Below the pieces are notes generated by a model. That model was not told the DNA's origin, did not search any database, and was given only the letters and a program-made list of their open reading frames with translations. Below, piece by piece: positions 2,640 to 61,800 of a stretch of 64,000 nt of DNA (positions are counted from its first letter, which is position 1; each line of letters begins with the position of its first letter). Position numbers and translations under genes: made by a program. Location of the stretch: assembly GCF_000189635.1 (NCBI RefSeq), contig NW_002476405.1, positions 124,001-188,000 of the forward strand, written 5' to 3'. Source of the DNA: Tetrahymena thermophila SB210 (lineage: Eukaryota > Ciliophora > Oligohymenophorea > Hymenostomatida > Tetrahymenidae).

Positions 2640-4710
2640 TATTTTAAATTTAATATGCTTAAGAAAAAGAAATAGTCTACTTGCTTGCTTAGACTAAATA
2701 GAAAAATGTAATAAATTTTATTTACAAATTTGTAGACTATTTGTTCTATTAATTATTTGGTTTTTATTAATCACTAGAAGCCACAAAAAAAAGTATCTTT
2801 TCTTAATTGAAATAAGAATTTATTAATTCAAATTTATTCAATCTCATGATTAGCTTTCTTTTAAAATCCATAAAAATATTTTTACTATCAATCCTTAATT
2901 TCTAAAAATTTTAAATTCATCTAGCATTTTATTTATTAAGATTATTTAATTTCTTATTGTACTTTTAGGTTTTAAATATTTAGGAATTTTAATAAATAAA
3001 TAAATCTATTCTATAAAAAATAAATATTTTTATTTAAACAAATTTAAAAAGAAATAAATGTGGTTCAGAAAAGAAAATAGCATGCCATAACTAAATAAAA
3101 AAAATGTAATTGATTTTGTTTATAAATTTTGTAGACTATTTGTTAATTTTCCTTTTCTATTTATATATTGTTTTTACTAATAACTAGAAGCCACAAAAAA
3201 AAGTATCTTTTCTAAATTGAAATAAGAATTTATTAGTTCAAATTTATTCAATCTCATGATTAGTATTCTTTTGAAATCCATAAAAATATTTTTACTATCA
3301 ATCCTTAATTTCTAAAAATTTTAAATTCATCTAGCATTTTTTTATTAAGATTATTTTATTATTTATTCTACTTTTAAGTTTAAAATATTTAGGAATTTTT
3401 ATAAATAAATATATTCTATTCTATAAAAAATAAATATTTAATTTTAAAAAGAAATAAATGTGCTTCAGAAAAGAAAATAGCATGCCTTAACTAAATAAAA
3501 AAAATGTAATTGATTTTGTTTATAAATTTTGTAGACTATTTGTTAATTTTCCTTTTCTATTTATATATGGTTTTTATGGACCATTAAATGCTATTAAAAG
3601 ACGTATCTTTTCTAAATTGAAATAAGAAGATATTAGTGGAAATTTATTAAATTAATTAGCTTTCTTTCAAAATTCATTAAAAGAAATTTTACAATCAATA
3701 GTTAAAATGTAAACATTTTAAAATTCATCAAGCTTTTTATTTAAGAAGACTATTTTACTTTTGATTGTAATTTTAGGTTTAAAATATTAAGTAATTGTAA
3801 TAAATAAATAAAATAAATATATCCATAAAAAATAGGCATTCTATATTTAATAAAAAATTATAAATGTAAAATATTTATAAAATCATTTTAAAATCAAGTA
3901 ATTAAATGCATTTCAGAAAACAAAGTATTATGCATAAACTAAAATAAAAAAAAATAATTAATTTTGTTTATAAATTTTGTAGACTATTTGTTAATTTTCC
4001 TTTTCTGTTTATATCTGGTTTTCATGGAACATTAGAAGCTATTAAAAGTAGAATTTTTTCTAAATTAAAATAAGAAGATATTAGTGGAAATTTATTAAAT
4101 TAATTAGCTTTCTTTCAAAATTCATAACAAAAACGTTACAATCAATCATCAATTTGTAAACATTTTTAAATTCATCGATCTTTTTATCTTTGATTGTACT
4201 TTTAGGTTTAAAATATTTAGCAATTTTTATTAATAAAATAAATCTTTTCCATAAAAAATAAACATTCTATACTTAGTAAAAATAATAAAGAAAAAATAAT
4301 TTGTAAAATATTTTTAAAATCAAGTAATTATATGCCTTTCAGAAAACAAAGTATTTTCAATAAACTAAAATAAAAAAATGTAATTAATTTTGTTTATAAA
4401 TTTGTGGACTAATTGTTAACTTTTTATTTTCTATTTATTTCTGTTTTTTATGAGTGATTGTAAGATAATAAAAAGCAGTATCTCTTTGAAATTAAAACAA
4501 GAATTTATAGTTCAAATTTACTAAATTTCATAGTTAATTTTTATTCAATATCTATAAAAATACTTTATGCAATCAATCCTCAGTTTGCAAAAAATTTTTG
4601 AATAAATCAAACATTTTATTTATCACTATTATATTATTATTGATTGTACTTTTAGGTTTAAAATTATAGATGTATTCAATAAAATATTTAGTTTAAGTTG
4701 GTATATAATA
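2640..4710 (+). repeat. Tandem array, five diverged units of about 400-446 bp
   Basis: Each unit carries the GTAGACTATTTGTT motif (near 2731, 3131, 3531, 3979 and a variant near 4404). In the first units this is followed by a tract reading AACTAGAAGCCACAAAAAAA, and then by a shared AT-rich body. Units two and three are the most alike; units four and five are more diverged. Block B has a single partial unit near 10131-10320, so the array expanded after or during the A/B duplication. Confidence 0.85.
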
Positions 4711-5889
4711 GAAATAAAGATAAAACTATGAATATTAATAATAATCCATACTTGTTTATTTTAAAATTATTGTCCCTTTATCAAATAATATTGGCTATGA
4801 TTTATTTATCAAAATGATAAAATAATTATGATATTATGATAATATTTTCTATGTTTTTTTTATATTAGAAAATGATAAAAGATATATATATATATATCTT
4901 AGGTGTAGCTGAAAAGTTAAAGGAAGATATTTTACTTAGATATTTTTATAGTGAACTTAAAATGAACAAATAGATTGTACTTTAATATTGCATTTTTATA
5001 TAGAGGACATTTTTATATAAAGTATCAATTATAAATAAATTAATTTTTAAAAATATAAATTGTAATGAGAAGAATAAGGCTCTTTAATGACATTTAAAAC
5101 TCTCATTTATAATAGAAAATATAAACATAAAAGTTTTTAAATAAGACATAATGCTTTTGAGTAAGAAATAAATAAATGACTTTTTCTCTTTATTTAGATA
5201 AATTAGAATCAATTTTTTTTTCTAAAGTTCTATTTAGATTTTGGAAAAATAAATAAAATTGCAAATCTGAAATTTCAAATTGACAAATTTATAATTTAAA
5301 CGTATGAATTTTTTGAATTTATGATATTAGTAGAGTAGACCTTATATTAAATATAATCAGCATTTTCATAATTTTATAACAAACAAACTATGTTTAGATT
5401 TTTTAGAAAAGTAAAAATAGACTAATTTAAAATAAAATAGAATTTTTTAATTTGAATTAATCAATAAATTTAACTTTTAATGCAATTTTTAATAATGAAT
5501 TAAATATCAACTAATAAAATAATTAATTTTATTATTATTTTCTAACTATTATTTAGAGTACAGTAATTAAATATAAATAAAATAATAAATACTTAATTTA
5601 TAAAATAATATTTAAAACAAATAAAAAAGTTTAGAAATTGGTTTCGAACTCACAAAAGAAAAAGAAAAAATATTTAGCTGAGGTTTTAATTAATTTTTCA
5701 ATCAAGAAATCTAAATTTTTAATCAAACAATTATCTATGAATTAAACATTTTTCCATTCATATTATTAATAATTTATTGATTTAAATGAAAAACTTAGAA
5801 TTTTATTTCAAAAATAAAATTTTTAGCAAATAATTAATTTTTTTAATAGTTTTTTCATTATTACTATTGTGGATGATCGATTTAACTAA

Positions 5890-6100
5890 TTGAGAAAGTT
5901 AATATGTAAAAAGAACAATAATCCAGCCAGATTTTTCTTGTTTGTTTTTCCATATAATTTAAAATTTTTGTATTACCGTATTATCTCTAAACTTGGCCCT
6001 CTGTTTTCTGCAAAACCGACCAAGGATATCAAAATTTTCAGTGAATACATTTTCGACCTACCTCGGCTGACCGAATAGTGGGTCTTATCGAGGGAATAAG
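5890..6100 (+). other. Compositionally odd patch with an ORF fragment and a hairpin
   Basis: The stretch 5937-6093 is richer in G and C than its surroundings. It reads openly on the plus strand, with fragments such as SKLGPLFSAKPTKDIKIFSE followed by a D-L-P-R-L-T-E end and then TAG, which would be Gln in ciliate code. The 3' end can fold: CCTCG (6061-6065) pairs with CGAGG (6089-6093), and GACC (6069-6072) with GGTC (6081-6084). I do not recognise the peptide. There is no ATG at the beginning of the open stretch (it opens with TTG). It could be a relic exon, an inserted fragment or a structured RNA. Confidence 0.35.
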
Positions 6101-7620: not shown

Positions 7621-7654
7621 AATGTTTAATGATTGTAATTACATTTGCTTATTT

Positions 7655-9307: not shown

Positions 9308-12300
9308 AATCTGATCAATAGTAAACTAATTTTATAGATTTTTTAAATTAAATAAGCAGTGCAGTGTAAGATAATTAAGAGGAGTGAAAAATACTAATCA
9401 CATTTTAAATAAATCAAGAGGTCAAAAAAATTTTATAGACTTCATAAATCAATTTAATTTCTGATTAAAGTAATTTTGATTATTTTTCAAATTATCAAAC
9501 ATTAGCCTAAATTCTTATTATTTATAACATTTTGATGATTTTATTAAAAAGAAAAAAGTTTTATGCCCTAAAATATATTATAAACATGAATTATTTTTTA
9601 TTATTGAACTTCTTTTTTGTAAATAATTATGATATATTGATTAATTAATAATAGATTTCATAGTATTAAGTAACTGTTTTGAAATTTTCATGGTAATTTA
9701 CTTAAAGTATTGTATGCATATAAATTAAACTTCTTCAAGCTTAACTTTTTCTGAAGCTTAACAAATAAAAAAAATCAAATAGATAAAGATTAAAACTTCG
9801 ATATTAAAGTATTAATTTTGTCTTTTTAATGATAAACAAATTAGGTAAAAATTTAATTAGATTACTTTATATGGGTTTACATTATCGAATAAATAGATAT
9901 ACGTATTAATTATTTTTATATGCAGAAAGTAATACTAAATATTTTAACTTTATCTCTAAAGTAAATTATTAATATATTATAAAATAAAGCTAAAATTTAA
10001 TAAATTTTAAGATTCAATAAATAAAAAAATCTAATCTATTATAAATAAATAAATATTCTTTATAAAAAAATTTTAATTGTAAAATAATTATTGAATATTT
10101 TAAATTTAATGTGCTTAAGGAAATAAAATAGTCTGCTAGCTTAAACTAAATAAATTTTATTTACAAAATTGTAGACTATTTGTTATATTCATCTATTCTA
10201 TTAATATTTGATTTTTATCAATCACTAGAAGCCATTAAAGAAGAGAAGTGTCTTTTATAAATTGAAGTAAGAAACTATTAGTTCAAATTTATCCAATTTC
10301 ATGATTAGTTTTCTTTTAAAATTGTAATAGGAAGATTAAGGTTTTTTAATGGCATTTAAAACTCTTTTTTATAATAGAGAAATATAAATATTAAAGTTAT
10401 TAAATAAAATATAATTCCTTTCAGAAAGAAAGAAATAAATATACAACTTTTTTCTCTTGCTTGATTTAGATAATAAATTAGAATCAATTTTTTCTTCTAA
10501 AGTTCTTTTAGATTTAAAGAAAAATTAATAAAATTGCAAATCTGAAATTTTAAATTGACAAATTTATAATTTAAACATGAGAATTTTATGAATTTATACT
10601 TTTAATATAGCTAATCCTTAATTAAAATATCACAAACTGTGTAGGTACAGATGGTGAAATTTCATTTAATTTTTATGATTTAAAGCTAATTTTACACTTT
10701 TTAAAATTTATGAATATTTCATTAAATGGTTTGTCAGTAAATGAAATAACACCCTCTCTCTCAGTTTTCTTATAATTTTTTAGCTTGATAGAGTCAAAGC
10801 GGTGTGTAGAATACATTCATAATAATTAGAAAAGATATTAATAAAAAATTATTTAATTTCAATAAATACGAAGAGTAAAAAATACTACTATATTTAGTTA
10901 GAAAGCTTCTTACATAAAATTATGGAAGTCTATAAAATTAAATTTTGTTACAAATGATCTTAAATCACTGTTTGCATTAATTAATAAATTCATTGGTATT
11001 TATTTTATCGAACTTCTTATTTAATACTATTACTACAATTGGAATCTTGTTCTAATCGAAAAGTATTATCTTATCTACATTTTGTAATATGAAAATCCTA
11101 AGAATACTTATTTCTTTTAATAGAATAACAGAAAGCTGTTTATAAAAAACTTTTTTGAAAATATTTTTTTATAATTAAAATCCATTAAAATTAAATTGTT
11201 TTACATAAAAAAGTATTTTCATATAAAAGAAATATTGTTTCATTTTTATGAGGCAAATTAATTTGTACTAAGAAATTTAGTTTAAGATTCTATATTTATC
11301 AATCTTTTGCTTGAACCGTTGCTATAACTTAAAGTGAATTATTATAATATTTACTTTGTTCTTGAATTAATATTTTTTGATTTACACTATTACTAAGATA
11401 GTTTTTATATTTTATAGATCAAAAGAAATTTAATTCGAGCAAGTCTAAATGCAATACTTAGTTTTACAGCTAAAAAATAATAGATTTTATCTTACTATAA
11501 AAACATATTTATTACATGTATTTAATTTGTAAATTTATGTAAAAAAAAATACTAATTATAGATTATGTTAATAGTAAGATATAAGATATATATTATAATA
11601 TCTATTTAAATATTTGCCAAACATTTATTCTACCTCAATATTTTTAAAAATTAATAATCAGACTGAAAATTCAAAAAATAAGTGAAATCATTATTTTAAA
11701 ATTTTCTTTTAATTTATAAAAAATATTTATTATACTACTAAATATTTATTTACTACTTATTATATAATTATTCAAGAATAGCTATATAAACTTCTAACAT
11801 TTCCTCATTTAATTCTATAAAATAAGTACTCATCAACTCCTACTTATTAATTTTCATATTTGGCTATACTCATTTTATCTTTTGAAAACTAAGAAATCTT
11901 ATAAAACAACTAATAATAGAGTTTTTTTATAAATTTTAAAGTAATTTTACCATAAAAGTTATTTATTTAACTAGCATTTTAAAGTTTAATAATTATTTGA
12001 AAAAAAGTTAATAATATTAGTATGAAAATTTACTATTTTGAATAATGTTTTTTACTTCTTTATTAAATTTTATATTACACAAAGGGCATTGATTAATATT
12101 CTCTTTTAGGTAATTATTTATCTATATTCTGTAGGTATGAAAGAGATAAAAATACAATAAAGTCCTTATTTGAGTCACAATTATCAATTATTTTCTACTT
12201 TACTTATTATTCACTCATTTTTATTAATATTTAATAGCAAAATTATTTACTTTAAAAATATAAATTAATAATGAAATAAAATTAATTGAACTATACATAA

Positions 12301-15094: not shown

Positions 15095-16508
15095 TTAAAG
15101 CATTTTTATACTTGTTAAATTTATTACAGAATCTTTTGATAATTTGTAGGAGACAATTTTTTTTAAACCAGAGATTTTTTAATTATGGTGACTTGATTTA
15201 TGGTTACAATTATTAGAAAAAAATAGAAAAAAAATAATTTTAAAAAGTCATATTAAGGAATAGTTAAATTTTTATATAAAAGCTCTCTAAATTATTAAAA
15301 TTATTTACTAAACACTTAATATATGTAATTTTTAAAATATTTTATTAGTATAACTAAAGATAATTTCATAATTCAAGCTTTTAACTCAATAAGAATATTT
15401 TTATTATCATAAAAAGAAATTTCTTAATTTTAATTCGTTATAAACAAGCTTAAAGTGATTTTTTAACATATTTAATAAGCAAAAATCATTCAAATTTTAA
15501 CAAAGATATTTATTAAGATATTAAATATTTATTGAATTATTAATACGTGTCAACATTTCATTTAAATTTGTTAAAGCATTTTTATACTTGTTAAATTTAC
15601 TACAGAATCTTTTGATAATTTGTGGAGACCATTTTTTTTAAACCAGAGATTTTTTATTTTGGTGATTTTATTTATTGTTACAATTATTAGAAAAAAATAA
15701 TTTTAAAAAGTTATTTTAAGGAATAGTTAAAAATTTATTTAAAAGGTTTCTAAATTATTAAAATTATTTGTTAAACATTTAATTTATGTAATTTTTAAAA
15801 TATTTTATTAGTATAACTAAAGATAATTTCATAATTCAAGCTTTTAACTCAATAAGGATATTTTTATTATCATAAAAAGAAATTTCTTAATTTTAATTCG
15901 TTATAAACAAGCTTAAAGTGATTTTTTAACATATTTAATAATCAAAAATAATTCAAATTTTAACAAAGATATTTATTAAGGATATTAAATATTTATTGAA
16001 TTATTAATACGTGTCAACATTTAATTTAAATTTGTTAAAGCATTTTTAAACTTGTTAAATTTATTACAGAATCTTTTGATAATTTGTAGAGATAATTTTT
16101 TTTAAACCAGAGATTTTTTAATTTTGGTGATTTGATTTATGGTTACAATTATTAGAAAAATATAGAAAAAAATAATTTAAAAAATTCATTTTAAGGAACA
16201 GTTAAAAATTTATATAAAAGCTCTCTAAATTATTAAAATTATTTGTTAAACATTTAATTTATGTAATTTTTAAAATATTTTTTTAGTATAACTAAAGATA
16301 ATTTCATAATTCAAGCTTTTAACTCAATAAGGATATTTTTATTATCATAAAAAGAAATTTCTTAATTTTAATTCGTTATAAACAAGCTTAAAGTGATTTT
16401 TTAACATATTTAATATGCAAAAAACATTCAAATTTTAACAAAGATATTTATTAAGGATATTAAATATTTATTGAATAATTAATACGTGTCAACATTTAAT
16501 TTAAATTT
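15095..16508 (+). repeat. Tandem array, three units of about 465-476 bp
   Basis: Units start at about 15095, 15571 and 16035 with TTAAAGCATTTTTA and end with a shared AATACGTGTCAACATTT tract. Each carries TTTGTRGAGA-type sequence near its start (about 15146, 15622, 16085), which resembles a diverged form of the GTAGACT motif found elsewhere in the window, followed by TTTAAACCAGAGATTTTTTA. The units are highly similar, so the expansion looks recent. Confidence 0.88.
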
Positions 16509-19318
16509 ATTATTTAATTATATCTATTTTGATTCTGTAAAATAATTCAATTAAAATATTACAATAATTTCAAATAATTAAGCTAAAATTTCATAGCGTA
16601 TATCTCAATAATGAGTAATCAATTTATCTATTTTTTGTAAAATAAAAAATTAATTTACTTGATTTCAAATTTCTTCTAATTAATATAAATTAGCATGCCT
16701 CTATTTTTTATCTATTAGAACGAATGGCTTTTTATTAAGATATATTCAAATTTTATTCACCCAATAGAATATTAAATTAAAAAATAATTAGTGCATTTAC
16801 TCTACTTTTTACTATATAACAACATTCTCGATATATTTCATAATTTACTAAAAGTATTCATTTATTTTCTTGTATCTTTTATATTCCGTTTTTAAGCTTT
16901 GAAGGAATTGTTCTTTTAATATTTTTCCATTATCTCCATAAACTTACTTATTTTTTTAAATATATAAAATGAATAAGATATTTAACTTTCGATTAAACCA
17001 ACTCCAATTAATATGTAGATTAATATTGTTTAAAATGATAAAAAAAATATTTTTAAATGAGTTTAAACCAAATATTAACTTCTGAAATAAACACTTTTTA
17101 AGAAGAATTAATAATTTTTTATATATTGTAGAATATCTTGAATTCACAAAAATAAAAGTCATAATTTTTCTTATTTTTCAAAAAATGAAATGCTTCTTGG
17201 TCAGAATATTTAATAATAAAATTTAAATTCAGTAACTCACAAATTTTACAACTTAAAATATATCCTACAATATAACTATCTAATTATTTTTATTTTATTT
17301 TATTTTTTACTATTTTATTTGAATGTACCGGATAGTTACATAATGTATTTATTATTATAAAAATTTAACCTACATATCTTAAATATTTTAAAAACATAAA
17401 AATTAAAACTAATTTATCAACGATCATTTACATTTGATGGTCATGAAGACTGACTTTGTATCTTACAGATTTTATTAATAAATTAAAGTTTAAAATTGAT
17501 TCAATTAATTACACGTGTGTTTTATTTAATTAAAAAAGTGTTAAAAAACCCATGTATTTATTTTCACATTATTTATTAAGGCTTTATTTCGATTAGGGAT
17601 TATTAAGAAATTAGATTGATCTATTGATTAAAAATTTCATTTAATGAGACTCAGCTATTAAAAGTAGACTTCCTTGCTTTCAAAAAAAGAAAAAAATACC
17701 CATTCTATAATAATCTTTTATTCTTAAAGTTTAATTATAATTATTTTATTTTAAAAGTAAATTTAAATAAATTGAAAATTATTTGATGCTAGTTAGGAAT
17801 GAATAATTTAGATTTATAATATAATTTATTTACATTTTTATTTATTTGAATTCTTGTTTTCTAGAAAATTAGAACTACATAAATTGATTATAAATTGACA
17901 TAGAATGTTACTCTTTATTTTTTCCAATTTTAATTTACATCATATCTAATCAAAATCATTATTAATTTTTTTTTTCTTATTCTATACATTTATGTGTACT
18001 TATTTATAAAATGTGGATTATAGTTATCATTTATAATAAAAGAAATAGGTAGACATAATTGTGGAAATCGAAGCAGATAACGCAATAAAAAAAATTTATT
18101 TAACTTACAAAGTAGTTTGCTTTTAAAATAGTTTTTCATAATAATTAATATTTAGTTAGAGCTCTCCTGTTATAAATTAATTTAAGATGAGTGGATTCTG
18201 CTTATTGTATCTTACAAGCAAAATTTTTAGTTTTTTTATACAATTACTGGTGCAGTAAGCACAAAAACTATTTTTTTTCTTCTTTTTCATTTTTTTATTG
18301 AAATAAAATAAATCTTCATTAATACTCACTCTCTTTTATTGGAATCTTAAAATAATTTCATAAAAGTTATTTATGAAAAATTACTTTAAATGACATAAAT
18401 TAATGTTGCATATTCTATTAACTCAATTTTTGTTTAGGAAACATTTTTTTAATTTAATTATATATTCATACATTTTCTTAAAGTAAATATTTTATTTTAA
18501 ATTTTCAATAATGCAAAAATAAACAAATAAATTTTTAGTAAATTAATAAAAAACTAAATAAATAAATAAATTAATAAATAAATAAATAAGTACTTATAGT
18601 TTCCAAGAAGTATTTACAATATATAATAAACAACAAATCATAAATTGAAAATAAAATATTTACTTAATTAAATACTTATATTAATCTCCTCTTACTTCTA
18701 TGTGTAGACTTATTCTTTCAATATACTTTTTTAAAGTCTTTTTATTTTTATTTTTTGGAATTTAATTTAGTTTTCTGTTATTATTTTTATGATTATTTTG
18801 GGTGAATTCATCAGGTAACCATTATTTTACTTAATTAAATAGCTAAAAATCACAAGCATCTAAAGATCTTTCATCTTAAATCTGTTGAACAAGAGGTTTT
18901 AGGTAATTAATTATTAATATGATTCTTGTTATATATGCTACTTCCTTATTCTAACTCATCTACTTTTAAAATCAAAATGCTCATAAAATATATAGTTATC
19001 ATCAATTTTTATTCAAATTGATTCCTTTTAGTAATAATTTTATGTTTTTCTCCTTGCACCACCTAAAATATATTCTAGTTTTTCATTCTCGTTTTATATA
19101 GGCTAAACTAAAAGTGATAATATATTTTTTAAATTAATATAGAATTGAAAGAGTAGTATCATAAAAAAATAAATTTAATTAAAGTAGTATTATTCAATAT
19201 ACAAAAATTTTTATTTTAAAATTGAATATATTTAATAACATAGAATTAAAAATATACATTATATATCATATTGTTTCAAATATTTATTAAATCACCTTTT
19301 TATTAAATTACCTTATAA

Positions 19319-41440: not shown

Positions 41441-44400
41441 TATATTAGTATTAAAAAAGTAAAACATTTATATTTTGATTAACAAGTTTACAGTATAATA
41501 AATTGAAAATTTTTTTAATTAGAGCAGAGTAAGTTGAAGGAATAATATCAAGCATCAATTTACAGTTTTTATTTAAATAAATTGTAGACTCTTAAAATTA
41601 GATTTTTTTGCTTTCATTTTGATTGGGTAAGAATAATATTCTAATATGAAATTTGAAAGTTTTTTTTAGATATTTATATCTTTATTGATTAATATATTAG
41701 GGTTGAATGTTACATTGGATTTTTAAAGTTATTTAAATATTTTCTATCTTCCATACATTAAAGCTTATTTCAAAGTCTAGCAATAATATTCATTCACAAA
41801 TATTTTAATTTCATTTTTTTAAATTTGCTTAAACAGAGTAAAAATTATTTTAAACCATTATTTTTTAAATTGAAAAAATTCTAAGATTTAAAAACAAAAA
41901 TATTGACTATTATAATTTCTTTTAAAAATATTTCGTAGATTTAATCAAACCTTTGGAAAAAACTCTTTGATCAAATTCTAAAATTTTCTTCAAAACAGGT
42001 TACAATTGAAAATTAAAATAGTTAGATATTTGATTAAAAAAGCAAATAAATACCTGGTGGGTTTTTTAAATTGTAATTAGATTTAAATAAAAAACTCTCA
42101 GAAAAATATAACAAAAATAAAGATCTAACTAATTGTAGTTAATTTATCAAAAATCGTTTTTCTGTTTTTTGTTTGAAATCTAACAATTTTAAAAGATATT
42201 CAATTATGTGTCTTTTCATTTTTCTTCTTAATTACTATTCAAACAAAGATTTTAAAAATTATTCTCTTACTATTCGTAAATATTTATAGCTTGCGAGGTG
42301 TCATAATTCATCGCAAAGATTAACATACTCTCTATTTTTTTATGAAGAATATTAATTGCTCATACATCATCTTTTTATGTTGATCTTTCATATTAGTAGA
42401 AACTATTTTTTGGACATTATATTGGATTTATCATGCAATATATTTAAATTATTTTTAGAGGTATTACTATAAAAATGACATTTTAGTGTAATATATATTC
42501 ATTATTCTAAATATTTTAAGCTATTTTACCAAAAAAACCTTATTCAGCAATAAATATTTTTTATTTTGTTCCATTAATAAAGTCAAAATAAAGTTAATAA
42601 TAATAGTAATAAAAATTAGTTTAGCATGAAAAATACATACTATATACATTTATTTATGATATTTATTTTTAAAATTAAAATTCATTTTTAATTTCTTCCT
42701 TGGTTCAAGATATTTCTATTTCTAAAAGACTTAAGAATGGGATTCTAAGGAAAGAGAAACTATATTAATATGAATAATATTCAAAAATGTTAAAATATTT
42801 ATTTCTATTTGATAAAAATCTTTCAAATTATTCAACTCTTAATTCAAAAACGAAATATTTGAGATGGCCATTTTTTTTATAAAATATAAATAATATTTAT
42901 TACTAAAACTCAAAAAAAGAAAATAAATTTTAAGACTATGATAAATATTAAAATTAAATAAACAGCTTTGGTAGATAAAATATGAGTGAAATATTAAATA
43001 TTATTATCGCTTAGTCATATTATAATTGTACTATGAAAACAAATATTTAAGTAGCCTGCAAAAATATTAAAATTAGAAATTTAAAAAGAGTCAATTAAGT
43101 GGTTGTTTTATTTGAAAAGAGTAATTCGAACGTTCTAAAATCAAATTTTTTTCATATAATTTTGTAGATTATTTGTTAATTTCAATTTCAAATTAATAGA
43201 AAAGTTTGTATGAAGACAATTAATTAGAAATATCTTTAAATTATCTTCTAAACAAAAAAAGTAATTAAATTGGTAAATTTAAAAAATTTAGAATTAATTA
43301 AGCTTAACTTTCTAATTTTTTATCAAAGAATAATTAAAAGATATTTTATATTAGCTATTATAATATATCAGTACAATAAATAAATAGAGTAATTTAGCTC
43401 ACTAATGTTATTTGTTTCATGTTTATTTTTAAAAAGTAAAACGGTTTTAAAATTAGAAGAAAAAAAATGTTACAAATGAATTATTCATTAAGTTGAAGAT
43501 AAAATAATGAAAATAAACAGTATTACGCTATAATTTTAAATAAATGAAAAAGAAACATTTTAAAATATTAGATATGTATTTGTTTCTTTGAATTTTAGAA
43601 ATATTTAAATATTTAAGCAAGTTCAGATTTTTTGCTTTTGTTTCATAAAAAATATGGTAATAACATTTATAATCTTCCAATTTAATAAATTATAACAAAA
43701 TTATATCTTGAATGTGTTTTATTATTGACTTTAAAATAATAAAATAAAGCTATTTCTTTTGTATTGTTCTTTTTTGATCTAAAGAAAAAAAATTAAGAAC
43801 TATCAATATACTTTTTTTTCAGATAAATGAATAACTTTAATACATCCATGCAGATTAAAGAGCCAAACTGCTTGAATTTATTTAGAATATTTTTGCTTTT
43901 ATTTGCTTCATACTTTAATCCACATTTCAATTTACAAATTTTGGAAACTTTGAAGTTTTTCCTTAGATTAGGTAGTTGAAAAATTAATCAAAAAAATTAG
44001 GCGCTTTTTAGTTTTAAAAAATCATACGATTTTATCAAGTGCTTAATTTTTCTATGTATGTATCACCCATTCTTACAATTATCTATTATTTTTTAAATAT
44101 CTAAATCAAAAATTTTTTTACTTCTATCTATGATTGTATTCGAATTTAATCTAATTTGTTTTGAAAGATGTAAAATAATTAATATCTAATTCTTACATTT
44201 ATTTATATCATTCAATCATATCTTGTTAAATATACAGTAGCGAAATCAGCTTTCTATTTTTTCTTATTTTATTTTAAGCATATTTTTAGAAGGAAAAACC
44301 TTGATTATTGGATTTAGCAACTAAACATTTAATTGCCATTTAGATCATCTTATATTTTATATGAAGAACTTAGTTTTAAAAGCACAATTTTTAAAATGGA

Positions 44401-45215
44401 TAAAACTTTCATTTTATTAAAAGAGTTAAGAAGCAGCCATAATATTATAGCTTTAGTTTGAAGTCATTATTCAATAATGAAAATTTTAATACATTTTCAA
44501 ATAAGATATTTTAAATCAATACATTTATATTTTATACAATAAATTAAACCCTCTAATGTAGTAGTCATATAAGATTGTTTAAGGACTACTTGTATAAAAT
44601 AAATTATGGGGGAGTATGGTTACCAAATTTAATATGTAATAACATACTAAGCAATACATAATAAGTATAAAATATTAATATTTTATTTAAAATAATATTC
44701 TTAATCAATAGTGAAAAGAGTTAATTTTATTGACATTTATATTTTTTAAAATAGAATGTCTCTCAACAATATATTATTTTGAGAAAAACATACCAAACAT
44801 ACTTATTATTAAACGCATAATCTAAATGTAATAAAATAAAAAATGTGTTGATAAAAACCTTTTTTTAAATTAGCTATTTAGAGAGAAAATATTTTTTTTC
44901 AATAAATTACTTTTTTAAAAATGATATTAGAATATATTTTCTATGTCAATTCAAGCAACTCTTTTTAAGCGCTTTTCATAAAATTTGTCGACTATTGATA
45001 AATTTCTTTTCAATATTTTGGATTTCAATTTAGAGATAAATTATAAGAACTGACTCAACAGCTTTTATTTAGATTGGAGAATATCTTTTATAATTATAAA
45101 ACAAACAAAATGATATTTACAAATTTAATTAGAAAATATCAGAACAAAAAAATAAAAATAGAAAATTTAAAATCTATACATAGATAGGAATTGCGTCATT
45201 TTTCTGGTTTATTTT
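41440..45215 (+). repeat. Full ~4-kb unit (U3)
   Basis: Tandem to U2. Similarity is uneven: about 41081-41240 in U2 and 44877-45036 here look identical base for base, while other parts carry many indels. It carries the QSYMTTTLEG version of the minus-strand fragment near 44520-44580. Confidence 0.85.
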
Positions 45216-45734: not shown

Positions 45735-46490
45735 CATATTATCACTCTATTTAAAATAGTTTACAGAAATAATTATGAGATTTAGTAAATCTTTAGTAAG
45801 TTAATCTTAGTACAAAATATAAATGATAATAATCTTTATCTATATTCTATTTACCATTTCGAAAATAGCAAATTTGAAAATTTAGAGACTTTATGTTTTC
45901 CTATTAAGATTGGATAATTGAATTTATCAATAAAAATTTGATTTTCTTAATTAATTTTTAGTTCAATTTTTTAATTTTCCTCATTTTTTAAGTAGATAGG
46001 ATTATATCTAATAAAAGTTGATTATCTGTTTGTTCTACTTCTTTTTTTGATCTCTTGAATGTTTGAAATAGCACAATAACGAACTACTTTTTTTATCAAA
46101 TCAATATTTGAATTTATATTTTAAATAGATTTAGAATAAGATTTATATAAATCTTTTAATCCAATTGTCTTGTTATGTAAATAAAGCTAAAATCTTCATG
46201 ATAAGTAATCCATTATTAAGATAATATTTATCATTGCGCATAGAAGAAATTTAGTATATAGAGAATAAATAATCTTTAATTAAAACCTACAATTATTATT
46301 ATACATAATTAAATTATCAAATATATTTATTATAATAGATTAAAGCTGAAATAATATGTTATATTTTAATTTTTAAACAAAAAAAATAATAGATTTTGTT
46401 AATTTTTTGATATTAATTGAAAATTATTTTATATTTATTCTATTGAATTTTAGTTGAATGAAGCAAAGTATAAGATAAATTTTCATATAT
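45735..46490 (+). repeat. Dispersed repeat paired with about 60960-61800
   Basis: Shared in order: TATCACTCTATTTAAAATA, AGTTAATCTTAGTA, the GAGACTTT motif near 45893 and 61111, TTGATTTTCTTAATT, and ATCTAATAAAAGTTGATTAT. It lies just before superblock II, so the 61-kb copy may mark the start of a third superblock running off the window. Confidence 0.8.
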
Positions 46491-50770: not shown

Positions 50771-50811
50771 TATTTTCTAAATATAGTTTTTTAAAAATAG
50801 CTATTTACTTT

Positions 50812-52278
50812 TCAAATAAGCAAACAAGCTATTATTAAGCTTGAAAAAGCTAAAACGATAGATGATGATGATGATGATGATGATGATTAGGATGATGATG
50901 ATGGTTTAGTAGAAACGCAGGATTTTTAATCTGCAGAAGCATATTGCTTTGCAGAATTAACACCACTAGCATTACATACTTGACAATCTGAGTCAGTCCA
51001 ACCAGAACTTCTAGTGCAACTTGCAGTTGAATTAACGCAAGCGTTTGCGTAAGCATTTGCAAATTTGTTAGTTTGATTACATGAACCACAGAAGTAGTCA
51101 TTCAAACCACTTGTAGGCATAGGAGCACCTAAGCAAGATTTAACATAACAATTTTAGGTATCAGATGATGGTATATCAAATTAGAAATTAGTGAAAGTAC
51201 CACAATTAGTGCAAGAGCCAGAATTTTGGCATGGGACATTAGTACCTTTCTAAGCTACAGTAGCTTAACAGGAAGATTAATCTGCTTTAGCAAATAACAA
51301 AGTTGAAGTGGCTGTGCCTGTATTACAAATAACACAATCTGAATCTGTCCAACCAGAGGTTCTTGAGCTCTAGCATGTAGCTGAACTTGCAGCACAAGAT
51401 GAACCATCAGTATTAGCGTATAGTTAAGTTCCTTTAGTAGCACTGCCTGTATTACATTTGCTACAGTCACTATCATTCCAAGTTTTAGCAGCTCTACTAT
51501 TTCCACATGTGGCGCCACTTGCTACACAAGATGATCCATCAGTATTAGCATATACGTTAGATCCTTTAGTTGTACTACCTGTATTACATAAGCTACAGTC
51601 ACTATCATTCCAAACAGTATTACCTCTAGAGGTGCATGAGGAGCTGCTTGCTACACAAGTTTTTTTATCAGTATTAGCATATATTTTTGCTGAATTAGCT
51701 CCACCAGCATTACAAGTAGAGCAGTCTGTATCAGAAAAAGCGCTAGGTCTAGTGTTAGAACATGAATCTGAAGAATTTACACATGCTGTTCCATAAGAAT
51801 TTGCCCATGGATTAGAACCACCACATGATTTGCAAAAGTTATCAATTAAATTAGCAGTTGGCATAGGTGCAGCTAAGCATGATGTGATGATACAATTAGT
51901 TGTATCACTAGCTGGCATAGACCAAGCAAAAGCTGGTGAAATTGTACCACAGGAACTACAAGAAGTACTTTTCTAACATGGAACAAGTGATCCTGCAGTA
52001 GCTACAGCACTTTGACAACCAGTTTTTTAAAGATTAGCGTAGGCATTACCTCCAGGTAAACAAGATGAGCATAGAGTATCATATACATTTGTCAAAGTAT
52101 TACCGACAGTACTACAATCAGAGATTTTTGATTTGCCAGTTGTAGATCCTGCAGTCCAAGAGCTACCACCAGCTCCACCACATAAAGATTAATCATTAGT
52201 AGTACACTAAACTTCTGTGCCTGAACCAGCAAATATAATTGTTATTGCAAGTGAAAGTATAATTAATTATTTAATCAT
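50812..52278 (-). CDS. Immobilization-antigen-like GPI-anchored surface protein, medium form (gene 7)
   Basis: ATG at 52278 to TGA at 50812-50814; 488 residues, all codons read with no in-frame TGA. It begins MIKQLIILSLAITIIFAGSG (signal peptide). The N-module includes YDTLCSSC and CLAAPMPTANLIDNFCKSCG. About four 42-45 residue units follow, built on W-N-D-S-D-C-S-x-C-N-T-G-S and Y-A-N-T-D-G-S-S-C-V-A-S. After these comes a second family block (CLGAPMPTSGLNDYFCGSCN) and a last WTDSDCQVCNASG module. The tail is a Ser-rich run coded mainly by a TCA repeat, then LAFSSLIIACLLI. It is the superblock paralogue of gene 6, sharing both ends but with few internal units. Inferred surface coat antigen. 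Confidence 0.9.
50860..50903 (-). repeat. Trinucleotide repeat coding the poly-Ser linker of gene 7
   Basis: GAT repeats on the plus strand (TCA/ATC on the coding strand) give a run of Ser with one Gln, just before the hydrophobic tail. The equivalent Ser runs in the other genes are shorter. Confidence 0.85.
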
Positions 52279-52480: not shown

Positions 52481-53864
52481 AAATAATCAAAATATCTAAT
52501 AGGGGGAATTATTCCATCTGGTCAATAACTCAAATTATAATTAGTTATTAATAAAAGATTGATATTTGTTTTTATTTTGGAAAAGATAGGGTAAGGAAAA
52601 GTAAATATTTTGAATAAAAAAATAATTGATATATTAAAATTTTAAGTTTATTTTTTAAATACAATTTATTTATCTTATGGCCAACAAATACAAAGCGAAT
52701 TCATATTACAGTTGATTTAAAAATAAATTTTTTTAAAGGTATTTTAAGTACATATTAGTTTTAATCGTTTAAATTCAATAAGAAAATAAGCTAATTTTGT
52801 AAAATATCAAATATATTTTAATCATTTTTTAAAGATCTAATAAGATTTTGAATATTTTAAGAATATGATAATTTTTTACATTTTAATGAGAGTTAATAAA
52901 TTAAATTTCTTTGTTGATAATTATTTGATTGATACATATTATATAGTTACTTCTGTTCATTAATCATAAAAATAGATAAAATTTAAAATAAAGGTATGTA
53001 TAGGCATTATAAAAATTAAAATAAAGAAATATAAATATGTGTTTTTTATTTAGTTTTTTCTTTTTAGATTTTGTAGACTATTTGTTAATTTACATCCAAA
53101 ATTAGTTGATTTAAGTTTGAAATTAAATGAAATTTTACCCCCAAATCTATCTTTTGTTTATATCAAAAAAAATCAAGAGAAGTAAGTATCTTTTTCTAAA
53201 TTTGATTAAGAATTTATTGCTTTTAAATATTTTAATGTAATGATGTGCTCTAATAAGGCATAATTACATTCATATTGGAATCTGTAAGAACAAAACAAAA
53301 AAATATAAGATTAATGTAGAAAAAATTAAGAATTTGTGTTAATTATTTTACTTTTACTTACTTTTTTATTGTCAAATAAACAAATTAAAAAATATTTTAT
53401 CCTTGATTATTATTTAAAAACTTAATTATCTATCTTAAAAGTACTAGGGTTACATAAAATTTTATAAATAATTAGTATTTATTTATTTTCTTTCATTTTT
53501 CATTTGATGTCTTTTTTGATAAAGTCATCCAATAAAAATATTATTAATTAATTTCGTATTAATCTAAAATTCAAGTAGTTATTTGTTTAAAAGCTAAATT
53601 ATTCTATATTGGTATTTTGTTGCTCAAATCAACCATAACTCTTAATATACGCAATTTTCTATTTCTAATACTTCCTCTAATCAAATTTTATTTGTAGACT
53701 ATTTATTTAAAATTCATTCTTTTCTATTTAATTTATTTTGAGTTTTAGTTTAGTAAGTTAATCAGTCTCTAACTTTGGACATTAATATATCTTATAGAGA
53801 TATACCGTGTTTGAATTCATTCTTTTGGTAGTTTCTTCTATTCAATAATTCATATTCGGCTGTT

Positions 53865-56800
53865 TTAGGTGTTAAAAAAGTAAAATATTTCAAATTTTAT
53901 TTATATTCTAATTAGAAAGTTTACAATATGATATTCAAAAGATTTATAAATTAGAACAGAGAATGCTTGAAGGCAAAATGTTAAACATCAATTTACAATT
54001 TATTTTAAATAAAGTGTATGCTTTATTTATTTTGCTTTCAACTTGATTGGGTAAGGAAAATATTCTAATATGAAATTTGACAATTTTTTTAGATATTTAA
54101 ATATTTATGGCTTAACAAATTAGGGTTGAAAACAAAATTGGATTTTTATTTTATTTTTTATTTTCTATCTTCAATTTATTAAAGCTTATTTCAAAAGTCT
54201 AGCAACAATATTCGTTCACAAAAACTAACACCAATTCTTTAAATTTTTCTTAAACACTGCAAAAATTATTTTAAACCATTAATTTTAAGAAGTAAAAAAA
54301 TTCTAAGATTTAAAAACAAAAACAGATGATTAAATTTTTTTTAAAATTGTTTCATTTTTATAATAATACCATTTGATAAGAAATTATTTGATTCTAATTC
54401 AACTAACAATTTTCTCCAAAATATTTCACAATTGAAATTCATTTATTTAGAGATATTTGATTAAAAAAGCGAATAAATACTGGGTAAGATTACTAAATTG
54501 AGATTAGATTAAAATAAATAATATTCAGAAAAATACAAAAAGATATCCTATCAATTGAGGTTAGAATTTATCAAAAATTGTTTCTTATATTTTTTATTAG
54601 AAATTCAAAAATTATAAAAGATATTCAATTAGGTGGTTTTTGATTTTACTTTCTTAATCATTGTTCAAACAAAGCTTTCAAAAATTATTCTCTTACAATT
54701 AGTATTTATTTATTTTCTACGAGATGACACTATACCTAAATACTCTATATCTTACTCTTTTTTTCTTCTGAAGAATATTAATTTTTCATACATTTATTTT
54801 TTAAATTTAACTTATTTAAAAAATTTTCCTTTTCACCATTTTTTCTTCCATAATAGCAGAAAGCTGTTTATGACATCATATTAGATTTATTATGTGATAT
54901 TAAACTTAAAACTATTTTTTTATTGTTAATATAATCAAAACGCTCTATAAGATATAATATTGTTTATTCTTTGGCTTTAACGATATTTTACCAAAAAAAA
55001 CTTAGTCACAAATAAGTTATTTAGAAAGACATATTTTTATTTTATGCAATTAAAAAGCCAAAATAAAATTAATAATAAAAAAATAATATTATTTTAACAT
55101 GGCAAACACACACTATGTACAATTGATAATGATATTTATTGACAATTATATAAATTTCAATATGTGTTATAATACTAAAAATACCTTAAATCTTTGTCTA
55201 TCTACATGATTAATAAGGTAAATAATTTTAGGAAGTTAAAACTTTATTTCACAGATATTTTTATTTCTAAAAACTTAAAAATACGATTCTGAAGATAGAG
55301 AAACTATATTGATATCAATAAACATTCAAAAATGTTAAAATATTTGTTTGATAAAAACATTTTTCAATTATTGAACTCTTTTATACAAAAACGAAATATT
55401 TTGGAAAGAGATTTTTTTATAAATAATTAGTAATATTTATAATTGTGATTCATAAAAAGAAAATTTTAGACTATGATAAATGTTCAACTAAATAAATAGC
55501 TTTGGTACATAAAATACATGAGAATAAATAAATTATTTCTTTTTGCTTATTTATATCATAGCAGTATTTGGCAAACAAATATTTAAGTTAGCCTACAATA
55601 AGATAAAATTATTTACTCAAAATGAGCCAATTTAAAGCTTGTTTTCTTTGAAATCAGTAATTCGAATATTCTTATATATAAAATTTTCTTCATAAAATTT
55701 TGTAGACTATTTGTTTTATTTCCATTTCAAATTAATATTAATTCATGTTCGAAGAAAATTAATTAGAATTATATCTACCTTATCTTCTAAACAAAAAAAG
55801 GAATTTAATTGATATACTTACAAAATTTAGAATTGATTACTCTTAACTTTCTAATNNNNNNNNNNNNNNNNNNNNNNNNNNNNNNNNNNNNNNNNNNNNN
55901 NNNNNNNNNNNNNNNNNNNNNNNNNNNNNNNNNNNNNNNNNNNNNNNNNNNNNNNACAATTGAATGATAGTTTACATTAGCTATTAGAATATATAAGACA
56001 AAAAAATAAATAGAGTAATTTAGCTTGCAAATGCTATTTGTTTCATCTTTATTTTTTATAAGTAAAATGTTTTAAAATTTGAAAACAAAAATGGTAATAA
56101 GAAATGAACTATTGATTAAGTCTAAGATAAAATATTTAAAATGTAAATTTGTGGTATAATTTTATAATTTTTAATAAATGAAAAAATGACCTTTTTAAGA
56201 TATTATAAAAGTATTTATTTCTTTGAATATTAGAAATATTTAAATATTTAAGCAAGTAAAATTTTGTTTTGCTTTCATTTCAATAAAAAAAATATGAAAG
56301 TTTTATTTCTAATCTTTCAATTTAAAATACTTAAACCATATAATATTTTGATAATAATTTTATTAAAGATTTTAAAATAAAAAAAATAAAGCTATTTCTT
56401 AAGTATTTCTACTTTTCATCTGAAGAAAAATTAAGACCTAACAATATAAATTTTTTAGATAAATAAATAACTTTAATACATCTGTGTAAATTATAGGATG
56501 AAACCGCTCACATAAAATATTAAAATAATTTCATAACTACTGAATTTATAATGAATATAAAAAATATTTTTGCTTTAATTTGCTTCATACTTTTAGCTAC
56601 ATTTCATAGTAAAAAATTTGGAGACTTTGTAGTTTTTCCTTTAATTAGATTAGTTGAAAAATTAATTAAAAAAAATTAGGCATGTTTTGGTTTTAAAAAA
56701 TCATATGGATTTCTCAAATATTTAATTTTTCTATATGTATGAGATGATTCACCCATACCATTCTTAAATATCTTTTTATCATTCAATCAATTCTCTTCAA

Positions 56801-57605: not shown

Positions 57606-60600
57606 TTTTGATTATCATAAATAAGGCGTATCTTCATTCAATATTTAGTTACATTTAAAGACTTAAAATAGTACTGATAGAAAAGAATCAAATATTAATA
57701 TTCTCGTGAAAATATTTTGTATTTTTTCTTAGATTTCTTAAAAAATTCTCTAGATAACAATTAAAAGATCTACAAATTTGAAAAAGTTTTTCAGCAGAAA
57801 GCTAAAATCTTTAAATCAAATCTTTCTTGAAGTAAAGTTTTTGCGAAGATTAGGTGATAAACTAAAATTCAGGAAAAACTAACTTTTTACAAGTAAAACT
57901 AAAATTTACTTACAAATAAATTTTAATTTCATTATACTAGATTTTATTTTTAAAATAAAAATTTAAATTATGTATTATATTTCTCTTTATAAATATTTAT
58001 TTTTTGTTTATTTTCCATATCTAATATCTTTTAATTACATTCAACAATTATTCTCTTATAATGTTAATATACTTTTTTTCTAAAATCTAATATTTCTCTC
58101 TTCAATTTTTTGTTTTTTCTATTTGAAAAAAACAGAGAAAAATTTATTTTTTTGTGTCTTGAGTTCTTTCTTATTGTTTTATTAAATATTTATTCCTTCT
58201 TTCTTTTATTCATCTTTCTCAAATTGCTTTAGAATATTGGGTCTATTCAATAAAAAAATTATATTATTATTAATGGATGTATGTTTTTAAATAATGTAAT
58301 TCCTCTAAAATTCTACAACCTGGAGCTAGGAATTATACAATTTTTTGAAAATCTTTTTTATTTTTATAATCGAAAATAAAGTTTTTTATCCAGCCATATT
58401 ATGAAGAATAACAGTTTATTTTTATATATAAAAATATTTAATTTATTTATTGGTATAAGAATGATAGAAAAGAAGTCTAAATATGGTAATCAATATTTTA
58501 TACAAGATAAAGATTGAAAGTAATTCAATGAATATGCTTTTAAAAATATTAAATTTGATTCCATTATATCTATTAAATGAATGATAAAAATATTTTTAAT
58601 ATTCTTTGTAGATTATATTAAAATAAAGAATAGCAAAGTCATTCTATACGAGTTTTAGCATATATAGAGCTTATAAAAAAATTAAAATTTAGTTTTGATA
58701 TTTTGCAGTACTATTTAATAAATAAAATAATTTTTTATTAGATATTGAGAAATATATATATTAGACTTTAGAATTTCTTCTTAAAAATGAAAGACAACTT
58801 AGTCTTTTTTAAGATTTATTAATAAAATTTGTAGACTATTTGTAGGATTTTCTTTTAAGATTGTAAAAATCTAATTATAAGATATGCCTTATCTTTTCTC
58901 TCTCTTTATCGCTCTTTTTGTATATTTAGGGTATTGTAAAAATTAATTAAAAGTTCATTACTCTTGATTTCATGAATTACCTAATTTGATTTCTTTTCTT
59001 CTAAAATCAAATTAAAAGATCTATTCTTTTATCAAAGAGTGCAAAATCTAATAGGATAAAGTAAATGAAGAGTATTAATATATCCTATCAGATTTATCTC
59101 TTATTTATTCTTTTTAATGTAATAGTTATTATTTTATATAAAATAATTCATTTTTACTATTTAATAATTTATTTTACTTATAAAAAAAATATGAATAATT
59201 TAAATTATGTTTATCAAAAAAAACTAATCCAGTATTTTAACCATTTTATTTAATTTTTTATATGTATTTAATCCTGAAAATTTAGAGACTTTGTTATTTT
59301 TTTAGCTTAGATTGGTTAACAATCAAGTAAATAAATATATGAATAATAGAAAATAACTTAATATATATTTTTTTTAAATTAGATTTTCTCTTATAGAATG
59401 ATAATCAATCATCGATCGATCGATTTATATTTATAATTCAAATATTTTAAGTTTTCAAAAATAACATTATGATTTTTCAATTTATAAATAAAATATTTAT
59501 CAATTATTTTAAAGTAGATTCTTATTTAAAAGTTGCTTATTTAGATAGCTTGAAAAAATAAAAAGATAGAATTTCGAATTAAAATATTTTGTATTATTCA
59601 TTTTTTAGATTATTTTTCTAATTTTTAAAGACTTCTTTCTCTTTATCTTTTAAAAAACTTTCTTATCAATATTTTTAATAGTAGCAGTAAGTAGTTAAGC
59701 AAGTATAACATTTTATAGATGTAAAAAATGATAAAACCTATCAGATAATTAGAATTCAATTTTTATTTTATAATTCTTAAAAATGTAATTTAATACATTG
59801 CAAATAATAAAAAAATATACATTTTTTTATTTTTAACGCTTTCATACTTTAAAACATTGTTTGTAATCAAAAGAGAATCGAAAAAATCAAATAAATACTT
59901 GTATAAATATTTCTTTTACTGCGTATGTTGAGAAATTAATATCCTCTTCAATTATTATAATCAAATAAAAATAAATAAAATAATAACCTCATTTATAATT
60001 TGAAAGATAAAAATTTAGAAATGTATGATAAAGAGATGTTAGGGTAGTGAATGAATGAATGTAAGAATTTCTTGTTTAATGAATTTTTATATTTTATATT
60101 ATAACTACATGATGAAAAGATTTATAAATAAAAAAAATTCTCTTGTTACTCCTATAAAATATTTACTAATTAAAAAAGGACAATTAAAGTATTCAGAACA
60201 TATTTTCTCACCATATATTTTTAATTTTCTATGTAAAATTTGTAGACTATTTTTTTGATTTTCCTTTCATATTCAAATTTGCGTAAATTAAATAAAATAG
60301 ATATCTGCTTTTTTCATCAATTATCAATTGAGTATTGAAATTCATTACTTTTTCTAATCTGATTAAATATAGATTACGCTCTATTTCTTATCTTTTCTAA
60401 TTGTCATTCGACTAATTACAATTAATAAATATTTCACTAATACAAATATAATCTATCAGAAATAAAATCAATCAAGCAATGAAAGTAATCATCTAAAGTG
60501 AATACACTAATTTTGTATACTTCACTATATATTTTATTCATATATATGAATAAATAATAAATAAAATTATTTTATTTTGGTTCATTCAATAAATAAAAAT

Positions 60601-60959
60601 GTATAAGAATGATAGATGGATATATAAAGAATTTATTCGTATAAATGTTTTAAGCACTTTGAAAGAAAAAGATTCCATTTTAGAGTATTTAAATTAGCAT
60701 TATTTATATTTCAATAAAAATAAATGTGCTTTTTTTATCTTTGTTAAAATAATACTTAGACATAAAAATAAAATGAAATGTTTAATCTAAAGCAATAAAT
60801 AAAATAAAAAAGCATACCAAAATAATTATTTAAATACCAACATTAATATAAATATAATTTTATTATTTATTAGCTTATGCTAATTGATAAATAAATACTT
60901 ACAAAAAGATTGAACCATTAATTTTTTCAAAGTATATGTAAAGAAAGACAGTAAATTAA

Positions 60960-61800
60960 TTCATATTATCACTCTATTTAAAATATTTTACAGAAATAAT
61001 TATATAATTTAGTAAGCCTTTAATAAGTTAATCTTAGTATAAAATATAAATGTCCATATTCTTAATTCATATCTATTTGCCATTTCGCATTTGGCGAATT
61101 AAAAATTTTGGAGACTTTAAATGTTTTTCCTAATAAGATATATTGAATATATCTACAAAAATTTGATTTTCTTAATTGTTTTTTAGTTCAATTTTTTGAT
61201 TTTCCTCGTTTAAATTAATTTGAAAGAATTTTATCTAATAAAAGTTGATTATCTGATATAATTTTTTTTTATCTCTTAAATGTTTGAAAAAGCATAAGAA
61301 CATACTTTTTTATCTCATCAATGTTTGCATATAAAATATATTTTAAAATAGATTTAGCATAAGATTTATATATCTCTTTTAATATAGTTATCTCGTTAAG
61401 CAAATTTAACTAAAACTTGTTGAAATTTAATCATTATACATAAAAGAAATTTAATGTTTTGAGAATCAATAATTTTCATATAAACTTTATTAAAAGCTAA
61501 AAATATATAATTGTTAAGTAAATCGAACTAAAGTCTAAATGATAGATAATCAAGCATACTAGAAATTGGTGTTTTGAAAATCAATAGTTTTCATATAAAC
61601 ATTATTAAAAACTAAGATTTTTTAAATTTAATTAAATTATTAAATCATTTATAATATAGATTAAAACTCAAATAATATATTATATTTTAATATTTATTTT
61701 TTAACAAATCAAAAAAATTTTGTGAATTATTTAAAATTATTTTATCTCTAATTCTATAAAATTTTAGTTGAACAAAGCAAATATAAGGTAAATTTTCATA
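60960..61800 (+). repeat. Dispersed repeat paired with 45735-46490
   Basis: Collinear match as described for the 45.7-kb copy; it may be the left edge of another superblock. Confidence 0.75.

What the first reader, a model, noticed from the sequence alone, without database searches (positions are those of the whole stretch)
2660..61130. One-strand dispersed motif GTAGACTATTTGTT across the noncoding DNA
About 21 copies of a 30-base element, consensus AATTTTGTAGACTATTTGTT followed by a T/C-rich tract, occur in noncoding DNA. Positions: near 2731, 3131, 3531, 3979, 4404, 10171, 23511, 23866, 26936, 37099, 37611, 39351, 41189, 41584, 43164, 44987, 53073, 53693, 55701, 58831 and 60241. A sister form TTTGGAGACTTTG...TTTTTCC occurs near 25158, 40110, 43942, 45893, 56620, 59283 and 61110, and TTTGTRGAGA forms near 15146, 15622 and 16085. 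All are on the plus strand, opposite to every gene. The only reverse-strand resemblance noticed is ATAGTCTAC at about 2671, inverted to the first copy. The motif is often kept while flanks diverge. It could be a processing or excision signal, a small-RNA gene element, a replication element, or the conserved core of an old repeat.
Basis: partly seen in the sequence, partly recalled or inferred. Interest (0 to 1): 0.75.

Follow-up and report, generated by a model that had tools for sequence, protein, structure and literature searches.

The report
Locus-bound one-way noncoding DNA motif
A short DNA word is repeated, nearly always facing the same way, in the noncoding DNA around a cluster of surface-protein genes of the ciliate Tetrahymena; it is real and looks better kept than its surroundings, but it seems confined to this one place and its job is unproven.

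Summary
The motif is real. The window is a Tetrahymena thermophila-type contig with a SerH-like surface-antigen array whose genes lie on the minus strand. The plus-strand core AATTTGTAGACTATTTGTT, with a T-rich lead and a T/C-rich tail, recurs far above chance. So does a sister form, AATTTGGAGACTTTG..TTTTTCC. The 32 sites examined are not 32 events: five lie in one 400-bp tandem array and many in direct local duplications. Single linkage of flanks leaves 10 groups.

Genome-wide there is no dispersed signal. Nine of 11 exact 14-mers in 101 Mb lie in this window, and outside it the extended word is at control level. This argues against a general processing, promoter, replication or excision signal. 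Direct duplication largely explains the one-strand bias.

Still, after masking alignable copies and Ser genes, it is the most over-represented non-microsatellite 12-mer (12 seen, 0.55 expected, 0 on minus). Flanks of different groups are no more alike than random. In the two best-sampled groups the core varies several-fold less than other windows; other groups show no constraint.

Best reading: a locally amplified noncoding unit whose core is probably a cis-signal for plus-strand noncoding transcripts (0.4). Main rival: neutral relic (0.35).

The parts
2732..2745 (+). M-type core, exact; first of a tandem array of about 400-bp units
3131..3144 (+). M-type core, exact; tandem array
3531..3544 (+). 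M-type core, exact; tandem array
3979..3992 (+). M-type core, exact; tandem array
4404..4417 (+). M-type core, 2 mismatches; tandem array
2667..2680 (-). closest reverse-strand copy (1 mismatch), inverted to 2732; weaker one at 10123
10171..10184 (+). M-type core, exact; paralogue of 2732 (duplicated segment 1361-2867 / 8825-10322)
23511..23524 (+). M-type core, diverged after GTAGACT; tandem pair with 23866
23866..23879 (+). M-type core, 3 mismatches in the 14-mer, matches AATTTGTAGACTATT exactly
26936..26949 (+). M-type core, 1 mismatch; flanks link to no other site
37099..37112 (+). M-type core, exact; group D paralogue
37611..37624 (+). degenerate M-type (GTAGACT only); group E
39351..39364 (+). 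M-type core, exact; group D
41188..41201 (+). M-type variant GTCGACTATT; group F
41584..41597 (+). degenerate M-type (GTAGACT only); group E
43164..43177 (+). M-type core, 1 mismatch (GTAGATT); group D
44987..45000 (+). M-type variant GTCGACTATT; group F
53073..53086 (+). M-type core, exact
53694..53707 (+). M-type core, 1 mismatch
55702..55715 (+). M-type core, exact; group D
58831..58844 (+). M-type core, 1 mismatch; flanks link to no other site
60242..60255 (+). M-type core, 1 mismatch; flanks link to no other site
25153..25175 (+). S-type (AATTTGGAGACTTACATTTTTCC)
40105..40129 (+). S-type (GGAAACTTTG..TTTTTCC), paralogue of 43943 and 56620
43938..43962 (+). S-type, paralogue of 40110
45879..45901 (+). 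S-type (AATTTAGAGACTTTATGTTTTCC)
56615..56639 (+). S-type, AATTTGGAGACTTTG exact
59279..59303 (+). S-type (AATTTAGAGACTTTG), tail without CC
61105..61130 (+). S-type, paralogue of 45884
15095..16512 (+). 475-bp tandem repeat, three copies, each with a third variant (AATTTGTNGAGA-like)
35785..45214 (.). noncoding stretch made largely of direct local duplications that carry groups D, E, F and S
29786..35272 (-). SerH-type surface antigen gene, 1828 aa, with about 37 repeats of 120 bp
50812..52278 (-). SerH-type surface antigen gene, 488 aa

Best explanation
Shown: a block of about 63 kb (121.9-185.1 kb of contig C140, nearly all of it in the window) holds SerH-type antigen genes and noncoding DNA built by repeated direct local duplication, and carries a plus-strand element with two variants (M and S). 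The element is about 45 bases: T-rich lead, AAAATTT, core G[TG]AGACT[AT]TT, then a T/C-rich tail. Inferred: the core is kept by selection as a cis-acting signal of the duplicated noncoding unit. The likeliest role is to mark the start of plus-strand noncoding transcripts, either as a promoter/initiator (TATAAA-like stretch just before the core in several copies, pyrimidine tract after it) or as the point where a transcript is first cut. The transcripts would run opposite to the antigen genes and may feed the small-RNA machinery of growing Tetrahymena. The unit spread with the antigen array by direct duplication, which is why nearly every copy faces the same way and none was found elsewhere above chance.
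For: After masking later duplicate copies and Ser genes, AATTTGTAGACT (up to 1 mismatch) is the top non-microsatellite word of the block: 12 seen, 0.55 expected, 0 on minus. The S word AATTTGGAGACT: 7 seen, 0.23 expected, 0 on minus. In 14 chosen contexts aligned without gaps (three of them group A, two group D) information peaks at GTAGACTATT and is mostly at background beyond about -16 and +30. Flanks of ten M representatives are about as alike as random noncoding pairs (median local score 28 and 27, null 27; upstream p 0.07), while the core scores 36 against 17. In the two best-sampled paralogue groups the 14-base core shows 3 and 1 changes against means of 14.5 and 6.1 in other windows (fractions 0.014 and 0.025). 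The duplicates show no consistent codon phase and only 20 of 168 indels are multiples of 3 in the 11 pairs computed, so the constraint is not coding. In Tetrahymena, seven phased siRNA loci thought to begin with endonucleolytic cleavage are reported second-hand (passage in PMC6735861).
Against: No transcript or small-RNA data were available. Groups E and S45 show no constraint (fractions 0.91 and 0.95), B and F are uninformative (0.38, 0.52), S40 is 0.088; the combined Fisher p over the five M groups is only 0.035 or 0.009 by measure. The motif was chosen because it stood out. Inside groups other windows are as well conserved. No stable RNA fold in 11 copies on either strand. A general transcription or processing signal should recur genome-wide, and this one does not.
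Confidence: 0.4

Rival explanations
1. Neutral relic: the motif is the chance-surviving core of an old repeat that was copied by direct duplication as the antigen array grew; it has no function, and gene conversion or recency keeps some copies alike.
For: Confinement to one block. The duplications that carry the motif are direct (the two inverted pairs found at E<=1e-10 both involve one segment of about 190-210 bases at 125.7-125.9 kb, without the motif). Other windows in the duplicated units are as conserved within groups. Groups E and S45 show no constraint.
Against: No other non-microsatellite noncoding word in the block reaches the same excess after masking. Flanks of different groups are near background similarity while the core is nearly identical.
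Confidence: 0.35
2. Regulatory element of the antigen genes themselves (enhancer, insulator or switch element read in the opposite orientation), used for stage-specific or exclusive expression of the array.
For: Seven of eight Ser genes in and just left of the window have an M or third-form site about 0.8-1.85 kb upstream of the start (read by eye). Ser arrays are known to be tandem, mostly same-orientation and in part stage-specific (PMC4136848, passages). Of 83 listed places outside the block, four lie within 9 kb of a listed SerH match (C137, C116, C140:413 kb, C212); by a rough untested estimate about one would be expected.
Against: With a site every 1.5-2 kb of noncoding DNA such distances are unremarkable. 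Nine sites lie more than 5 kb from any Ser gene in the window (41188-44987 and 58831-61110). Three of those four outside places were read and show, by eye, no extended element; C212 was not fetched.
Confidence: 0.15
3. Decayed coding sequence: a fragment of a pseudogene family in which the motif encodes a short conserved peptide.
For: Long code-6 open frames cross some sites. One 254-codon minus-strand frame (56841-57605) has only 6 TAA/TAG codons.
Against: No consistent codon phase and 148 of 168 indels not multiples of 3 in 11 pairs (the Ser-gene pairs meant as positive controls did not run). The invariant C and G bases fall where synonymous change would be free in at least one frame each (my reading). 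The two open frames at 56.8-57.6 kb have no relative outside this block and no Pfam match.
Confidence: 0.05
4. Flank signal of germline excision (IES) or a recombination site that drives the duplications.
Against: Essentially one orientation, so no inverted flank pairs. Not found elsewhere above control although IESs number thousands (abstract in the listing). Sites are no nearer to duplication ends than random positions (median 146 against 141.5 bases).
Confidence: 0.05

Closest known systems
Tandem Ser (immobilization antigen) arrays of Tetrahymena thermophila
   Same: Genes here are SerH-type (PF06873), in tandem, in one orientation, as described for Ser arrays (PMC4136848, passages).
   Different: The terms 'noncoding', 'intergenic', 'upstream' and 'promoter' do not occur in that paper's main text (other spellings not searched); no conserved intergenic element appears in the passages I saw.
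Phased, strand-asymmetric siRNA loci of Tetrahymena (Couvillion 2009; Talsky and Collins 2012)
   Same: Few loci, one-strand character by title, a proposed endonucleolytic start that would need a positional signal (second-hand, PMC6735861).
   Different: Neither paper was held, so I do not know whether these loci lie here. No small-RNA data tested.
Ruby-motif (CTGTTTCA) 21U-RNA genes of nematodes
   Same: A short one-way motif repeated many times in clustered noncoding DNA (PMC4050365, passages).
   Different: Different organism and sequence; a known transcription signal with mapped small RNAs, which is lacking here.

Membership tests
SerH-type antigen array (setting) | Pfam SerH match on the genes | tested here: met
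SerH-type antigen array (setting) | tandem, same orientation | tested here: met
   listed C140 pieces are all minus
Phased siRNA locus | 23-24 nt sRNAs in register from one strand | not testable with these tools
   no sRNA data on hand
Phased siRNA locus | shared start signal on one strand | tested here: inconclusive
   a shared one-strand motif exists; its link to RNA starts is unknown, and that phased loci share a motif is my supposition
General promoter / Pol III or snRNA element | recurs genome-wide at many genes | tested here: not met
   111 matches to AATTTGTAGACTATT (up to 1 mismatch) against 112 for the reversed control; 17 of the 111 lie in this block. Looser forms not searched
IES flanking signal | paired, inverted copies around excision junctions | tested here: not met
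   25 plus and 0 minus at 14 bits or more in the block; junctions themselves not testable
Transposon family | copies in both orientations, unlinked, with ends or a transposase | tested here: not met
   group D segment, the one unit searched, matches only this block plus one 75-bp piece on C17; motif-bearing duplications direct; no search for a transposase was made
Known RNA family | Rfam match above gathering score | tested here: not met
   0 matches in the window
Coding sequence | codon-phase bias and in-frame indels between duplicates | tested here: not met
   11 of 18 planned pairs computed before the script stopped; no positive control ran

The most novel reading that the evidence does not exclude
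The M and S elements are the start (promoter or first-cut) signals of a locus-specific family of antisense-running noncoding RNAs, co-amplified with a Tetrahymena surface-antigen array, whose small RNAs help decide which antigen is expressed.
Probability: 0.13. Interest if true: 0.75.

Novelty: new member of a known kind. Interest (0 to 1): 0.42.

Why it matters
How ciliates choose one surface antigen among many is an old open question (general knowledge). A one-way element confined to one antigen array, and apparently kept while its surroundings decay, gives a concrete place to look: strand-specific RNA and small-RNA reads can be laid over about 30 named positions. If they are silent, the finding becomes a warning that local direct duplication alone can produce striking one-strand motifs.

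Tried and rejected
Rfam at gathering score: nothing. tRNA scan: nothing. RNA folding of 11 copies (10 M, 1 S) on both strands: no excess stability (mononucleotide shuffles). The inverted partner near 2671 can pair with the 2732 core, and those of two paralogues can too with G-U pairs, but the other four of the seven family members lack it: a curiosity of one subfamily. Link to duplication breakpoints: none. Protein origin of the 56.8-57.6 kb open frames: no relatives outside the block. A further copy at C140:190606 was dropped: its 89%-identical paralogue has lost the core, and the surroundings look to me like an intron-bearing gene; it is still among the 14 contexts. Places at C137, C140:413 kb and C116 near Ser genes: by eye no extended element; C212 not read. 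Sister pattern AATTTKGAGACTTTG genome-wide: 98 matches against 72 for the control, only 3 in the block, one of them (57313) not on my S list; the excess outside is unexplained. Viral contigs: none. Five spellings of the motif: in no held paper. Control word counts: in three other C140 stretches the six words printed for each are AT microsatellite-like and all occur on both strands, some skewed; in 20 kb of the C22 Ser array five of six leading words have 0 on minus, but its genes were not masked. The block run also left Ser genes unmasked, so Ser words follow GATA; the claim on rank rests. A 55-position sequence model was built and never used.
Full report
Setting. The window is bases 124001-188000 of contig C140 (516,068 bases) of a 101-Mb genome in 445 contigs. 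Code-6 reading gives long cysteine-rich proteins on the minus strand. Of 7 frames scanned, the two Ser-like ones match Pfam SerH. The genome has a ciliate telomerase RNA, and 134 residues of its telomerase protein matched PDB 6d6v in all but my mistyped first letter. From recall that entry is T. thermophila, and the assembly size fits its macronucleus.

The observation. GTAGACTATTTGTT with up to 3 mismatches is found 34 times in the window against 17.46 expected. Nine exact copies are all plus. A position-weight scan of C140:1-258000, trained on copies from the block, finds at 14 bits or more 25 plus and 0 minus sites at 119-191 kb, and 1 plus and 2 minus in the rest. AATTTGKAGACTWT with up to 1 mismatch gives 25 plus and 0 minus in the block, and 1 plus and 1 minus elsewhere; at up to 2 mismatches 39 plus and 4 minus, and 12 plus and 14 minus.

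How many independent copies. The noncoding DNA is made largely of direct local duplications: a 400-bp tandem array at 2.7-4.5 kb, a 475-bp one at 15.1-16.5 kb, and segments up to 2.5 kb, mostly 70-95% identical. Only two inverted pairs were found in 258 kb at E<=1e-10, both involving one segment of about 200 bases without the motif. With the motif itself removed, flanks of 32 sites (22 M, 7 S, 3 third-form) fall into 10 groups by single linkage at E 1e-4. The one-strand bias therefore has a plain cause: copies made by direct duplication inherit their orientation.

Genome-wide. The exact 14-mer occurs 11 times in 101 Mb, 9 of them in the window; the reversed-pattern control occurs 4 times. An 18-mer form occurs 5 times, all in the window. 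AATTTGTAGACTATT with up to 1 mismatch occurs 111 times against 112 for the control; 17 of these, all plus, lie at 121.9-184.2 kb of C140 (which printed 100 of the 111 places). The sister pattern gives 98 against 72, with 3 in the block. The segment around 37099 matches only the block and one 75-base piece on C17.

Is the core special? Yes, with limits. After masking later duplicate copies and Ser genes (44,701 bases left), the leading words are GATA-type microsatellites, then AATTTGTAGACT (12 seen, 0.55 expected, 0 minus). AATTTGGAGACT has 7 seen against 0.23, 0 minus. Masking by BLAST may leave some diverged relatives, so these counts are not all independent. In three other C140 stretches the printed leading words are AT microsatellite-like and occur on both strands; an unmasked 20-kb piece of another Ser array shows one-strand words, probably coding. 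Fourteen chosen contexts show GTAGACTATT nearly invariant inside flanks mostly at background (one of them, at 190606, was later judged a chance match). Flank similarity between ten M representatives is about that of random noncoding pairs, with the upstream side marginal (p 0.07), while the core is far above. Within paralogue groups the core is unusually quiet in A (3 changes, mean 14.5) and D (1, mean 6.1), weakly so in S40 (0.088), not informative in B and F, and not conserved in E and S45. Fisher p over the five M groups is 0.035 or 0.009 by measure, over all seven 0.041 or 0.012. Within groups other windows are as well conserved. I read this as moderate, not strong, evidence for selection.

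What it is not. It is not coding by what was computed: in 11 of 18 planned duplicate pairs no codon phase stands out consistently and 20 of 168 indels are multiples of 3 (no positive control ran). It is not a known RNA, has no stable fold in 11 copies, is not at duplication ends, and shows no sign of a transposon or virus in what was searched.

Mechanism. The anatomy is T-rich lead, an AAAATTT stretch that is TATAAA-like in several copies, the core, then a T/C-rich tail, in two variants. In parts of the block an S site follows an M site by about 0.45-1.3 kb (23866-25158, 39351-40110, 43164-43943, 44987-45884, 55702-56620, 58831-59284, 60242-61110; positions; some are duplicates of each other). 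I infer a start signal for plus-strand noncoding transcripts, by promoter action or first cut. The nearest precedent in the same organism is a set of seven phased siRNA loci, reported second-hand in PMC6735861 (passages); the originals were not held. No RNA evidence was available, so this stands at 0.4 against 0.35 for a neutral relic.

Papers seen. PMC4136848, PMC6735861, PMC4050365, PMC12876857 and PMC6562869: passages only. Others: search listings only. Five spellings of the motif occur in no held paper.

Noticed in passing
29786-35272 (-): A SerH-type gene of 1828 aa with about 37 copies of a 120-bp repeat (periods 237 and 357 also reported), much longer than its neighbours in the array.
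   Followed up: partly
15095-16512: Three 475-bp tandem units, about 92-95% identical, with a third variant of the motif in each.
   Followed up: partly
35300-50800 and 52300-64000: Long stretches (about 15 and 12 kb) in which I saw no convincing gene, unusual for a gene-dense macronuclear genome (general knowledge); direct local duplications fill much of the first and part of the second.
   Followed up: partly
56841-57605 (-) and 56945-57493 (+): Overlapping long code-6 open frames on both strands, few stop-like codons on minus, no relative outside the block; related DNA at 40.3 and 44.2 kb is broken. An S-like word sits inside at 57313.
   Followed up: yes
63383-63685: A 154-bp tandem duplication (92% matches) near the window's right end.
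   Followed up: no
1259-1358 and 55856-55955: Two runs of exactly 100 N, which look like scaffold gaps of unknown size; the second lies between 55702 (M) and 56620 (S), so that spacing is uncertain.
   Followed up: no
C140:119482-119553, left of the window: A GATA microsatellite that heads the word counts of the block.
   Followed up: no
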